Positions 2,421 through 6,303 of a stretch of DNA of 6,611 nt are shown here, piece after piece (position 1 is the stretch's first letter; each line of letters starts with the position of its first letter). Source of the DNA: Actinomycetes bacterium (lineage in GTDB: Bacteria; Actinomycetota; Acidimicrobiia; Acidimicrobiales; Acidimicrobiaceae); the NCBI GenBank assembly GCA_021833085.1, contig JAKBGL010000053.1:1-6611 (forward strand). Direction: 5' to 3'. The notes below the pieces were generated by a model. It searched no databases. It was not told the origin of the DNA and saw nothing but the letters and a program-made list of their open reading frames with translations. The position numbers and the translations under genes were made by a program.

Positions 2421-2642
2421 ATGGAATCTGAAGAGTTTTTGAGTAAGGTAGCGCAGGCTTTTGGAACAGTTTCACCTAGCGATGATGACATCTCGACGGT
2501 GTTAACGATTGCTTCGGTTGCGGCACACTCTAGTGAGAGAAAAATGGCTCCTATTGTCTGCTGGCTTTCTGCCAAGGCTGGAATCTCCCCCAATGATGCT
2601 TTGGAGATTGTCTCTAGAGTTGTTGATGGCCAGCTTAGCTAA
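2421..2642 (+). CDS. DUF6457 domain protein, molybdenum cofactor-associated small protein
   Basis: A 73-residue mostly helical cytosolic protein. The central part (about residues 28-54) fits the DUF6457 pattern, with a helix, an Ala-Ala-His-Ser-x-Glu-Arg motif (34-40), then Ala-Pro and a hydrophobic helix. In actinobacteria this domain sits beside, or is fused to, the MobA nucleotidyltransferase, as here, where mobA starts 1 base after the TAA. The molecular function is not known, and a helper role in cofactor guanylylation is inference from context. ATG 2421 is the first start after an in-frame TAA upstream, and its ribosome site is weak (AGG, 3 bases before). Family assignment is from remembered motif similarity. 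The gene is a real coding unit judged by length, position and tight coupling to mobA. Confidence 0.7.
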   Translation: MESEEFLSKVAQAFGTVSPSDDDISTVLTIASVAAHSSERKMAPIVCWLSAKAGISPNDALEIVSRVVDGQLS

Positions 2643-2643
2643 A

Positions 2644-3234
2644 ATGAGATCGCCAAGGAGTGGCGACTTCGGCGCGGTTATATTAAGTGGTGGCCGTAGT
2701 TCTCGCATGGGACAAGATAAAGCGTTGCTCCGAACACCGTCTGGGAAGATGATGATCGAGATCGTATCGCAGGCGGCTTCTCTTGTTGCAAGTTATGTAG
2801 TCGAAGTTGGGGGAAACTACTCTGGACATGACTACGTTGCAGATAGAAGTATACACGAAGGTCCCTTGGCGGCTAGTGTTGCGGGTCTTCGAGCTATAAC
2901 TTCAAAACGATTGTTTGATGGAATTTTTGTGTTAGCTTGCGACCTTGCTTCGATTGACTCTGATGCTTTGAAGTCGTTAGTCGTTCTATCTGGAGGATGC
3001 ACAGTCGTGCCAGTCGTGTCAGGTCGAGCTCAGTACAGCTGCAGCTTTATCTCTGCTTCCGGAGTTAACCGAGTCCTTGGAAAAAAGGAGTTTCGAAGTT
3101 CTAAGTGGTCTGAACTCTATGAAGCAACGGACGACGTGGTCTATCTCGACGTCGATTTGGAGCCTAATTTAGTTCCAGATGCGTTCTTGGATGTAGATAC
3201 TCCGTCGGAGTATACATCGTTATTTCATACCTAG
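2644..3234 (+). CDS. mobA: Molybdenum cofactor guanylyltransferase MobA
   Basis: A 196-residue cytosolic nucleotidyltransferase, the usual MobA length. It transfers GMP from GTP to Mo-molybdopterin, giving the MGD needed by bis-MGD enzymes such as the formate dehydrogenase downstream. Visible motifs are the N-terminal GTP-binding loop G16-G-R-S-S-R-M-G-x-D-K26, Glu-Gly-Pro-Leu at 72-75 (family GPLAG), the metal-binding Cys-Asp at 99-100 and Asp-x-Asp-Thr-Pro at 183-187. The family's usual Cys-Asp-x-Pro is Cys-Asp-Leu-Ala here, a mild deviation. The frame stays open upstream to 2509, but ATG 2644 is preferred because it puts the GTP loop at the normal distance from the N-terminus and follows the DUF6457 stop by one base. 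ATG 2626 is a second option that overlaps DUF6457. Neither has a strong Shine-Dalgarno, which suggests translation coupled to DUF6457. It ends in TAG. Confidence 0.9.
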   Translation: MRSPRSGDFGAVILSGGRSSRMGQDKALLRTPSGKMMIEIVSQAASLVASYVVEVGGNYSGHDYVADRSIHEGPLAASVAGLRAITSKRLFDGIFVLACDLASIDSDALKSLVVLSGGCTVVPVVSGRAQYSCSFISASGVNRVLGKKEFRSSKWSELYEATDDVVYLDVDLEPNLVPDAFLDVDTPSEYTSLFHT

Positions 3235-3345: not shown

Positions 3346-4956
3346 GTGTATGTGGCTACAAAGATTACCGTTGAGGACAAGGAGTTAGAGGCTAGAGTCG
3401 GCGAAGTACTCATTGATGTATTGAGGAAGCACGACATCGATTTTCCAAGTATCTGTTATAACGACTTGTTGGGTCCAATCAAGACCTGTGACACATGTTT
3501 TGTTGAGGTAAATTCGAAACTCAAAAGAGCGTGCGACTACAAAGTACAAGGCTTGGAATACGTAAGTATTAGTACGTCACTAGCAGAGTCGTCCAGACAA
3601 GAAGGAATGCAGCGTATCCTTGAGAATCATGATCTTTACTGCACTATCTGTGAGAACAACAACGGTAACTGCATAGTACATAACACCTTTTCAGCGATGG
3701 GTATAACCGAACAGATCTACCCACACAGGAGTAAAGGTTATAGTATCGATGCTTCTCACCCGTTTTATCGCTATGATCCGGATCAGTGCATTCTTTGTGG
3801 ACGCTGCGTGGAAGCATGTCAAAACCTCCAAGTCAATGAGACACTTAGCATAGACTGGTCTCTACCCCAACCAAGGGTCTTGTGGGATGGGGGAGTAGAT
3901 GCCGGAACTTCAAGTTGTGTAGGTTGTGGACACTGCGTTACCGTCTGCCCGTGCAACGCACTGATGGAGAAGTCGATGCTCAAAGAGGCTGGCCTTTTTA
4001 CGAACATGGCGGAGGAAATTAAACGACCCCTAATCTCTCTTACAAAATCACTAGAGCCGGCTATAGGACTTACAACGATACTTTCGATCTCTGAGGCTGA
4101 GTCGAAGTTACGTAAAGAGCAGATAACAAAGACAAAAACGGTCTGTACCTACTGTGGAGTTGGCTGCTCCTTTGAGATCTGGACGAAAAATCGAAAGATC
4201 TTAAAGGTTGAACCAACTATGGAGAGTCCTGCGAACCAGATCTCAACTTGTGTGAAGGGCAAGTTCGGTTGGGATTACGTGAACTCTGCGGAGAGGCTAA
4301 CGACTCCTCTTATAAGAGTGGGAGATCGGTTTCAGGAAACGTCGTGGGACGAGGCGTTAGCTTTTCTTGCTAGACGAATAGGTGAGATAAAGTCCGAGTC
4401 GGGGCCGGACTCACTCGGCTTTATATCTTCGTCTAAGTGCACGAACGAAGAGAGTTTTTTAATGCAGAAATTGGCGCGAGCCGTCGTGGGTACAAACAAC
4501 GTTGACAACTGTTCACGTTACTGCCAATCCCCTGCCACTATGGGCCTCGTCCGAACCGTTGGTGTAGGAGGTGACTCCGGATCGATTACTGATATTGCGA
4601 AGGCAGAACTGGTTCTTATAATTGGTTCAAATACCGCAGAGAGCCACCCAGTCATCGCCACGAGAGTGAAGCGGGCCCAGAAGCTTGATGGTCAAAAGCT
4701 TGTAGTAGTTGATCTTAGAAAACATGAGATGGCGGAGCGCGCTGATCTATTTATTTCGCCACGGCCCGGCACCGATCTAGTTCTTCTAAGTGCGGTCGCA
4801 AAGTACCTAGTCGATTCTGAGCGGTATGATAAGAGGTTTGTTTCCGAGAAGACGATTCAGGTACAAGATTACCTAACATCTTTAGTTCCGTTTACCCTTG
4901 AGTACGCAAGTGTAGTATGTGAGCTCGATAAAGAGGTCATTATCGAGCTAGCATAG
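3346..4956 (+). CDS. fdhF: Formate dehydrogenase catalytic subunit, N-terminal part, ended by an in-frame TAG
   Basis: The first 536 residues of a YrhE/YjgC-type molybdenum or tungsten formate dehydrogenase (formate to CO2 or the reverse). The order of domains is: 2Fe-2S domain (C37, C48, C51, C63); His-Cys3 4Fe-4S site (H95, C99, C102, C109); two ferredoxin 4Fe-4S clusters (C148/151/154/158 and C191/194/197/201); then the catalytic domain with its own 4Fe-4S site (C267, C270, C274, C302). The metal-ligand residue is Cys 393 in Asn-Cys-Ser-Arg-Tyr-Cys-Gln-Ser-Pro-Ala-Thr, so this is a Cys and not a selenocysteine enzyme. Gln follows it where E. coli FdhF has His, as I recall for the Bacillus and Staphylococcus group. 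No signal peptide, so cytoplasmic. GTG 3346 is chosen for its AGGAG at 7 bases. The TAG at 4954-4956 ends it in mid-domain, before the C-terminal cofactor-binding domain, so the fragment alone should be inactive. The remainder follows in the same frame. Confidence 0.9.
   Translation: MYVATKITVEDKELEARVGEVLIDVLRKHDIDFPSICYNDLLGPIKTCDTCFVEVNSKLKRACDYKVQGLEYVSISTSLAESSRQEGMQRILENHDLYCTICENNNGNCIVHNTFSAMGITEQIYPHRSKGYSIDASHPFYRYDPDQCILCGRCVEACQNLQVNETLSIDWSLPQPRVLWDGGVDAGTSSCVGCGHCVTVCPCNALMEKSMLKEAGLFTNMAEEIKRPLISLTKSLEPAIGLTTILSISEAESKLRKEQITKTKTVCTYCGVGCSFEIWTKNRKILKVEPTMESPANQISTCVKGKFGWDYVNSAERLTTPLIRVGDRFQETSWDEALAFLARRIGEIKSESGPDSLGFISSSKCTNEESFLMQKLARAVVGTNNVDNCSRYCQSPATMGLVRTVGVGGDSGSITDIAKAELVLIIGSNTAESHPVIATRVKRAQKLDGQKLVVVDLRKHEMAERADLFISPRPGTDLVLLSAVAKYLVDSERYDKRFVSEKTIQVQDYLTSLVPFTLEYASVVCELDKEVIIELA
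4922..4949 (+). repeat. Perfect 10-bp hairpin just before the in-frame TAG
   Basis: The arms AGCTCGATAA (4922-4931) and TTATCGAGCT (4940-4949) are exact reverse complements around the 8-base loop AGAGGTCA. The loop holds an SD-like AGAGG. The right arm ends 4 bases before the TAG (4954), and ATG 4957 follows. It lies inside sequence coding for conserved-length protein (reading L-D-K-E-V-I-I-E-L), so it may be coincidental. If it folds, it could influence termination or re-initiation at this junction. Confidence 0.5.
4954..4956 (+). other. In-frame amber codon splitting the formate dehydrogenase gene
   Basis: TAG at codon 537 counted from GTG 3346. The frame before and after is the same, and both sides align with the family without a gap. 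In remembered Bacillus and Staphylococcus homologues this position (Leu/Phe-Ala-x) is Glu, so one G-to-T change from GAG would explain it. TAG also ends mobA (3232-3234) and, twice in tandem, this gene itself (6301-6306), so TAG appears to be an ordinary stop here. Confidence 0.9.
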
Positions 4957-6303
4957 ATGGTTGCGTCGGTTTCGTCTATGGCGGTGCTCTGGGCCATGGG
5001 GGTGACTCAACATCAAAGAGGCTCTGATACTTCAACGGCTATTTCTAATCTGCTTTTGTTAACGGGTAACTATGGGAAACCAGGGTGCGGGGCTTATCCT
5101 CTTAGAGGTCACAACAACGTTCAAGGAGCTTCAGACTTCGGTTCAATGCCTGACAACCTTTCGGGGTATCAGTCTGTTGAAGACCAAGGTGCTAGGGAGC
5201 GTTTTGAGAACGAGTGGGGTGTGATCCTGCCGACGTCAAAGGGACTTGACAATCATGAGATGGTCGATGCTATCTATCAAGGGTCATTGCGAGGACTCTA
5301 TTTAATCGGAGAAGATATGGGACTCGTCGACTCCAACGCATCGTATGTGCGCGGGGCCTTTGAGAAACTTGACTTGTTTGTGGTGCAAGATATTTTTTTC
5401 TCTAGTACCGCTGCATATGCGGATGTGATCTTACCCGCGTCTCCGTCATTAGAGAAGGAAGGTACCTTCACTAACACGGAAAGAAGGATCCAGAAAATAA
5501 ACGAGGTGTTTCCTCCGTTGGAGCAGAGTCGACCGGATTGGCGTATTATCTGCGACTTAGCTAACGCTTTGTCAGCACGGTGGTGCTATAAAAATCCGGG
5601 AGAGGTGATGGATGAAGCTGCTAGGGTTACCCCACTCTTTGCAGGTGTGAGCTACGATCGATTAGAGGGATTTAGCTCATTGCAGTGGCCAGTATCCGCT
5701 GACGGTAGCGATACACCGACACTTTTTTTAGATGGATTTGGATTTGAGGACAAGAAGGCACGGCTCTGGCCCCTTGTCTATGGAGGTGTTAGTGAGGAGC
5801 CTGACTCGGAGTACGATCTCCACTTGAACAATGGGCGTCTTTTAGAACACTTTCACGAAGGTAATATGACTTATAAGACCCAAGGTATCAAAGACCGCAC
5901 TCCATCTACATTTGTTGAAGTGCCAGTCAAACTTGCTGAGGAACGAGGAATAAAAGACGGAACTTTAGTGCGACTTATATCTCGGCGAGGATCGGTGAAG
6001 GTCCGAGCGATAGTCACCGATCGCGTAACGAACAATCAACTATATATGCCGATGAACAGCTCTTCGAATGAGGATGCTATCAATATTCTGACATCATCAA
6101 GTACTGACTTGGCAACTCATACGCCTGCTTATAAAGAGCTAGCTGTAAAGTTGGAAGTAGTTGAGAAAGAAGGTCGATCGCCACTGCCAAGGAATAACTT
6201 TCGCTATGGAAGGCGTACGCCAAGCTTCGGTGTAATGGTGGAACGTAAGTGGTTGCGTGACGACTATGTGGATCCGCCGGCAAGACGAAAGAGAGAGTGG
6301 TAG
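4957..6303 (+). CDS. fdhF: Formate dehydrogenase catalytic subunit, C-terminal part
   Basis: 448 residues that continue the preceding gene in the same frame with no missing sequence. They begin in the molybdopterin oxidoreductase domain (Trp-Ala-Met-Gly-Val-Thr-Gln-His near residue 13) and hold the family signatures Gly-His-Asn-Asn-Val-Gln-Gly-Ala (about 50-57), Leu-Pro-Ala-Ser-Pro-Ser-Leu-Glu-Lys-Glu-Gly-Thr-Phe-Thr-Asn-Thr-Glu-Arg-Arg (about 159-177), and a C-terminal dinucleotide-binding domain with Asn-Asn-Gly-Arg-Leu-Leu-Glu-His-Phe-His-Glu-Gly-Asn-Met-Thr (about 291-305). ATG 4957 touches the preceding TAG, but no ribosome site stands at normal distance. The nearest SD-like AGAGG (4932-4936) is 20 bases away, in a hairpin loop. 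Alone this piece has no iron-sulfur ligands and no active-site Cys. It is either the separated half of a pseudogene or the product of re-initiation. With the first half it totals 985 residues including the amber position, the normal family length. It ends in tandem TAG TAG. Confidence 0.85.
   Translation: MVASVSSMAVLWAMGVTQHQRGSDTSTAISNLLLLTGNYGKPGCGAYPLRGHNNVQGASDFGSMPDNLSGYQSVEDQGARERFENEWGVILPTSKGLDNHEMVDAIYQGSLRGLYLIGEDMGLVDSNASYVRGAFEKLDLFVVQDIFFSSTAAYADVILPASPSLEKEGTFTNTERRIQKINEVFPPLEQSRPDWRIICDLANALSARWCYKNPGEVMDEAARVTPLFAGVSYDRLEGFSSLQWPVSADGSDTPTLFLDGFGFEDKKARLWPLVYGGVSEEPDSEYDLHLNNGRLLEHFHEGNMTYKTQGIKDRTPSTFVEVPVKLAEERGIKDGTLVRLISRRGSVKVRAIVTDRVTNNQLYMPMNSSSNEDAINILTSSSTDLATHTPAYKELAVKLEVVEKEGRSPLPRNNFRYGRRTPSFGVMVERKWLRDDYVDPPARRKREW

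What the first reader, a model, noticed from the sequence alone, without database searches (positions are those of the whole stretch)
4921..4960. Formate dehydrogenase split by a single in-frame TAG with ATG directly after it
Seen: TAG at 4954-4956 interrupts a frame that otherwise runs without fault from GTG 3346 to TAG 6301, 985 residues in all, matching the known length of the YrhE/YjgC family. All cluster cysteines and the Cys metal ligand are kept, and both halves read as well-conserved family sequence, so any damage is recent. Inference: (a) nonsense mutation or base error, Glu GAG to TAG; (b) a true two-piece enzyme through stop-start re-initiation (TAG-ATG touching); (c) amber suppression. 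The split lies within the catalytic domain, not at the Cys ligand, so it is unlike selenocysteine UGA genes.
Basis: partly seen in the sequence, partly recalled or inferred. Interest (0 to 1): 0.7.

Follow-up and report, generated by a model that had tools for sequence, protein, structure and literature searches.

The report
Stray stop in formate dehydrogenase gene
A formate-oxidising enzyme gene from an iron-oxidising acid-loving bacterium carries one premature stop in this copy, but a nearly identical genome and the compared relatives lack it there, so it is most likely a sequence error or a private recent mutation, not a new kind of split enzyme.

Summary
The TAG at 4954-4956 is really in the window and is the only break in a 985-codon forC (YjgC/YrhE) formate dehydrogenase gene of a Ferrithrix-like bacterium. 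It is not a conserved feature. The held same-species genome (G000, 13 differences in 6611 bases) is open there, with Glu. So is a protein from a 4566-base contig (P0123). None of 102 compared loci (95 distinct, G000 included) has a stop at that codon, and the column is variable, so it is no special site. The stop is one of four differences crowded into 19 bases, all T in the window, three of them changing the protein; the other nine are scattered, mostly silent transitions. That suggests a poor patch of sequence or assembly first, a recent strain mutation second. The touching ATG is the ordinary Met538 codon. Amber suppression is disfavoured: TAG is the commonest stop in the sampled stretches, and none of 39 named tRNAs reads it, though that tRNA set may be incomplete. 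Stop-start re-initiation cannot be excluded, since TAG touching a start joins frames elsewhere in this genus, but the cut lies inside the catalytic domain and parts the two active-site motifs. No reads were available.

The parts
3346..6303 (+). forC (YjgC/YrhE-type formate dehydrogenase catalytic subunit), interrupted by one in-frame TAG
   Evidence: intact counterpart in G000 scores 824 bits on TIGR01591 (cut-off 666)
3346..4953 (+). first open piece, 536 codons: 2Fe-2S and 4Fe-4S domains, Mo-ligand Cys (NCSRYCQSP), first half of PF00384
4954..4956 (+). in-frame TAG at codon 537; Glu in G000, G002 and G003
4954..4972 (+). 19-base patch with four of the 13 differences from G000 (4954, 4962, 4970, 4972), all T in the window
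4957..6303 (+). second open piece, 448 codons from the Met538 codon: second half of PF00384 (with the RGH motif) and PF01568
6306..6611 (+). start of a small gene, possibly forE; the whole gene in G000 has a sub-threshold DUF1641 match and is followed there by fdhD (beyond the window)
   Evidence: no Pfam match for the part inside the window
2644..3234 (+). mobA-like molybdenum cofactor guanylyltransferase (start codon chosen by eye)
   Evidence: queried from 2641
2421..2642 (+). small DUF6457 protein
   Evidence: 29.3 bits, cut-off 27; queried to 2638

Best explanation
The TAG is a private base change in this one copy of an otherwise normal, selected forC gene. Most likely it is a sequencing or assembly error in a short low-quality patch (4954-4972) of a metagenome assembly. 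In the organism the codon is then Glu and one 985-residue ForC is made, which works with a ForE-like partner and FdhD to oxidise formate. Shown: the stop, its absence from the same-species genome, the crowding of differences. Inferred: that the patch is technical, that the source is a thinly covered metagenome, and the function of the enzyme (from its family).
For: G000 is open over 985 codons with Glu537. P0123, 780 aa with longest contig 4566 bases, equals G000 over its length apart from the start residue, and differs from the window only at residues 1, 537, 542 and 543. 0 of 102 loci, G000 included, has a stop at this column. Four of 13 differences fall within 19 bases (3e-5 of 200,000 random placements, a test chosen after seeing the data). 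In the patch all four window bases are T and three of four differences change the protein; outside it 8 of 9 are silent and 8 of 9 are transitions. In forC outside the patch 5 of 5 differences are silent. A congener's metagenome contig bears cov_1.82 in its title. Late-cycle false T calls replacing G, then A and C, are described for an old Illumina chemistry (PMC2745764, passages read).
Against: No reads and no coverage of the window's own record were available, so error is not shown. Val542 (3 of 95) and Ser543 (6 of 95) occur in relatives, so two of the patch changes are natural-looking. The T-accumulation chemistry had been replaced by 2009 according to the same paper, and the platform used here is unknown. 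The sister species G002 has its own stop at codon 10 of forC and other lost conserved residues, so real decay of this gene seems to happen in the genus.
Confidence: 0.6

Rival explanations
1. A real, recent nonsense mutation in one strain, perhaps made with its three neighbours by a clustered mutation or a short recombination tract. The strain has lost ForC function, or the gene is starting to decay.
For: The nine differences outside the patch look like those of two strains (8 silent, 8 transitions). The sister species G002 carries a different GAG-to-TAG change at codon 10 and lacks five near-invariant residues that G000 keeps, including a Cys; a second protein record close to that species (P0121) also starts downstream of codon 10. 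G000 has two further FDH-like proteins at 36-37% identity that might stand in. The change at 4954 completes an inverted repeat with TCTATG at 4975-4980 (seen), a possible templating site.
Against: Crowding of four T's in 19 bases. No donor tract within 3 mismatches in G000. By my reading only one of the four changes fits hairpin templating. P0123 shows the Glu form.
Confidence: 0.34
2. A working two-piece enzyme: translation stops at TAG and re-initiates at the touching ATG, and the two pieces assemble.
For: A stop touching ATG or GTG between two long same-frame open frames was found 9 times in 42 stretches of G000 and G002, all 9 with TAG (5 ATG, 4 GTG); whether each is a true gene pair was not tested. 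The ribosome-binding score upstream of 4957 (-7.0) lies inside the range of those junctions (-2.9 to -13.3).
Against: The score counts an AGAGG about 17 bases upstream, which I judge too far. The ATG is Met538, Met in 58 of 95 relatives, so adjacency follows from any stop at codon 537. The cut divides PF00384 at profile position 183/184 and parts the CQ from the RGH motif. None of 102 loci has a stop here.
Confidence: 0.03
3. Amber suppression or reassignment gives full-length protein.
For: A second GAG-to-TAG change in forC of G002.
Against: TAG is the commonest stop of open frames of 250 codons or more in the sampled stretches of G000 (56 of 138) and G002 (51 of 138) (frames not checked to be genes). 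None of 39 ARAGORN-named tRNAs among 40 RF00005 matches has anticodon CUA; the set may be incomplete (one Val tRNA only).
Confidence: 0.01

Closest known systems
ForC of Bacillus subtilis ForCE1 (YjgC, PDB 8rqz/9gzq), paralogue YrhE of ForCE2
   Same: same length as YjgC (985), alignment over the whole length, CQ and RGH motifs; a small gene with a sub-threshold DUF1641 match beside it
   Different: the window copy has a stop at codon 537; mobA lies upstream and, in G000, fdhD downstream
forC of Ferrithrix thermotolerans DSM 19514 (L041) and of MAG DBS1-3.bin57 (L040)
   Same: 79% and 84% identical over the whole length, with Glu at codon 537
   Different: no stop at 537; L040 has its own TAG at codon 10
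premature stops from base errors in draft assemblies (general knowledge; listing only)
   Same: single base, beside other private differences
   Different: reads are not available to prove it here

Membership tests
ForC (YjgC/YrhE) formate dehydrogenase catalytic subunit | 2Fe-2S, 4Fe-4S and Mo/W-bis-PGD domains in ForC order, about 985 residues | tested here: met
   over the two pieces taken together
ForC (YjgC/YrhE) formate dehydrogenase catalytic subunit | active-site CQ ... RGH motif | tested here: met
   NCSRYCQSP in piece 1, PLRGHNN in piece 2; motif as stated in PMC8808070 (passages)
ForC (YjgC/YrhE) formate dehydrogenase catalytic subunit | adjacent ForE-like DUF1641 gene | tested here: inconclusive
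   full gene in G000: PF07849 18.5 bits, E 0.0018, below cut-off 21
ForC (YjgC/YrhE) formate dehydrogenase catalytic subunit | one uninterrupted reading frame | tested here: not met
   TAG at codon 537 in the window; met in G000
Selenocysteine formate dehydrogenase | in-frame UGA at the metal ligand | tested here: not met
   the ligand codon is Cys; the stop is TAG at codon 537
Amber-suppressed or pyrrolysine gene | a tRNA with anticodon CUA | tested here: not met
   0 of 39 named tRNAs in G000, one of 40 matches unnamed; G000 is 96% complete and differs from the window's copy, so a missed tRNA is possible
Natural split enzyme by stop-start coupling | the split conserved in relatives | tested here: not met
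   stop at codon 537 in 0 of 102 loci

The most novel reading that the evidence does not exclude
A strain of Ferrithrix makes ForC as two pieces by TAG-ATG re-initiation, using the same touching junction that joins frames elsewhere in its genus, and the pieces rebuild an active formate dehydrogenase.
Probability: 0.02. Interest if true: 0.55.

Novelty: not a real feature. Interest (0 to 1): 0.1.

Why it matters
It warns that one in-frame stop in a draft contig should be compared with a same-species genome before it is read as a split or recoded gene. If the mutation is real, it is one more case, beside that of the sister species, of loss of ForC in acidophilic iron oxidisers.

Tried and rejected
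Recurrent splitting at this place in databases. Searches with each piece (best 120 of 4371 and of 2669 matches listed) show many partial proteins. The ten listed C-terminal proteins of 448-452 aa, all fetched, begin at a Met that aligns by eye with Met538. Ten N-terminal proteins of the 120 listed were fetched. By eye six run past the site as family sequence (P0243, P0260, P0270, P0286, P0311, P0352), and P0325 runs past it into an odd tail. P0348 (500 aa) ends before it. P0269 (527 aa) turns into an unrelated tail shortly before it. P0279 (539 aa) turns into an unrelated tail at about codon 536-537, close to the site: this leans against my reading, but it is a change of sequence and not a plain in-frame stop. 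P0348/P0033 and P0269/P0035 have equal longest-contig lengths (10296, 7246), so they may be frame-broken pairs with gene callers restarting at Met538; this is inferred.

Gene conversion within the genome: no match within 3 mismatches in G000. Hairpin-templated mutation: the stretch folds better in the window (z -1.69) than in G000 (z 0.09), but by my reading only position 4954 fits templating. RNA element: no Rfam match at gathering score in the window. Plasmid copy: no near match for window 4700-5200. Searches on assembly errors and read errors and on Ferrithrix MAGs: listings only.

Full report
What is there. On the + strand the window holds a small DUF6457 gene, a mobA-like gene, and an FDH gene from GTG 3346 to TAG 6301, followed by the start of a small gene. 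In the same-species genome G000 that small gene is complete, has a sub-threshold DUF1641 match (18.5 bits, cut-off 21), and is followed by fdhD (4.5e-65). Two minus-strand frames at 2-784 and 975-2204 were not scanned. The FDH is of the ForC type. Its pieces match B. subtilis YjgC (8rqz, 985 aa) at 736 and 614 bits over residues 6-534 and 536-978, so the stop stands for one residue and nothing is missing. PMC8808070 (passages read) describes ForCE as a menaquinone-linked FDH with CQ and RGH motifs, mostly encoded beside a DUF1641 gene. The genus name rests (G003 is same genus) and on G003's contig length and identity equalling those of Ferrithrix thermotolerans DSM 19514; G002 likewise appears to be MAG DBS1-3.bin57.

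The stop. TAG at 4954-4956 is codon 537. It cuts PF00384 between profile positions 183 and 184, with the CQ motif before it and the RGH motif after it. Neither piece reaches the TIGR01591 cut-off of 666 bits (358 and 441 bits); the intact G000 protein does (824 bits). I infer that neither piece alone would be a formate dehydrogenase.

Same-species comparison. The tool places the window on G000 contig C129, yet the letters differ at 13 of 6611 positions. I do not know whether these are two strains or two assemblies of one. G000 is open over 985 codons with Glu537. Nine differences are scattered: 8 silent, 1 Leu/Phe in the minus-strand frame at 2-784, and 8 of the 9 are transitions. Four lie within 19 bases (4954, 4962, 4970, 4972). 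The window has T at all four, and they give the stop, a silent change, Ala to Val and Thr to Ser. Such crowding arose in 3e-5 of 200,000 random placements of 13 differences; this test was chosen after seeing the data. At 4954 G002 and G003 agree with G000; at 4962 G002 has T like the window, and at 4972 G003 has T in the raw alignment. In forC outside the patch all five differences are silent, and between G000 and G002 dN is 0.085 against dS 1.15, so the gene as a species trait is under purifying selection.

Wider comparison. P0123 (780 aa, longest contig 4566 bases, cluster of 4) equals G000 over its length apart from the start residue, with Glu537, Ala542 and Thr543; whether it is independent of G000's source is not known. 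Among 102 loci (22 including G000 itself, 80, which kept the best 80 of 587; 95 distinct) none has a stop at 537. Residues there are E 51, T 12, H 10, R 7, N 6, K 6, Q 4, D 4, V 2. The column is too variable to be a catalytic or specially decoded site. Stops elsewhere: L040/L008 (one record) at codon 10 and L066 at codon 974.

Rivals. Amber reading: TAG ends 56 of 138 open frames of at least 250 codons in 274,278 sampled bases of G000 (of 2,566,218) and 51 of 138 in 246,319 of G002. In G000, 39 of 40 tRNA matches were named and none has anticodon CUA. Re-initiation: in the same stretches nine same-frame junctions have a stop touching ATG or GTG, and all nine use TAG (that script skipped the first 3000 bases of each strand, and two more are seen in L163). 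So TAG touching a start could let ribosomes restart in this genus. But the Met538 codon is already there in G000, G002 and G003, and Met stands there in 58 of 95 relatives, so the touching ATG follows from any stop at codon 537. Nothing else points to a two-piece enzyme.

Error or mutation. For error: the crowding, the all-T pattern, and the low coverage stated in the title of a congener's contig (cov_1.82; the coverage of the window's own record is unknown). False T calls replacing G and then A and C late in reads are described for an old Illumina chemistry (PMC2745764, passages); whether it was used here is unknown. For real mutation: the other differences look like strain variation, Val542 and Ser543 occur in relatives, and forC of the sister species G002 seems to have decayed on its own. 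That copy has TAG at codon 10, Cys151 to Ser, and four more near-invariant residues lost beyond those shared with G000. P0121, a near-identical protein (one mismatch found over the part after its start) from a cluster whose longest contig is 52,668 bases, starts after codon 10. I put error at 0.6 and real mutation at 0.34.

Noticed in passing
L040 5001-7958 (MAG DBS1-3.bin57, apparently = G002 C152): forC of the sister species has TAG at codon 10 where G000 has GAG, and has lost five near-invariant residues that G000 keeps, including a Cys of the 4Fe-4S region (C151S). P0121, whose cluster reaches another, longer contig, starts downstream of codon 10. Looks like independent decay.
   Followed up: partly
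G000 and G002 stretches, e.g. L168:7249, L164:4732, L179 (- strand): Long same-frame open frames joined by a stop touching the next start use TAG then ATG or GTG in this genus (9 of 9 found), in several cases with a strong ribosome-binding score upstream.
   Followed up: partly
G000:C156:52783-54819 and G000:C170:5867-7903: Two further FDH-like proteins (open frames of 1013 and 1039 codons) at 36-37% identity to the window's forC.
   Followed up: no
L066 near 7932: A ForC relative in an Acidobacteriaceae MAG shows a stop at the position of codon 974, close to the C-terminus.
   Followed up: no
P0279 (539 aa, database protein): An N-terminal ForC fragment of another organism turns into an unrelated tail at about codon 536-537, close to the window's stop; probably a frame break or contig end, not checked at DNA level.
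   Followed up: no
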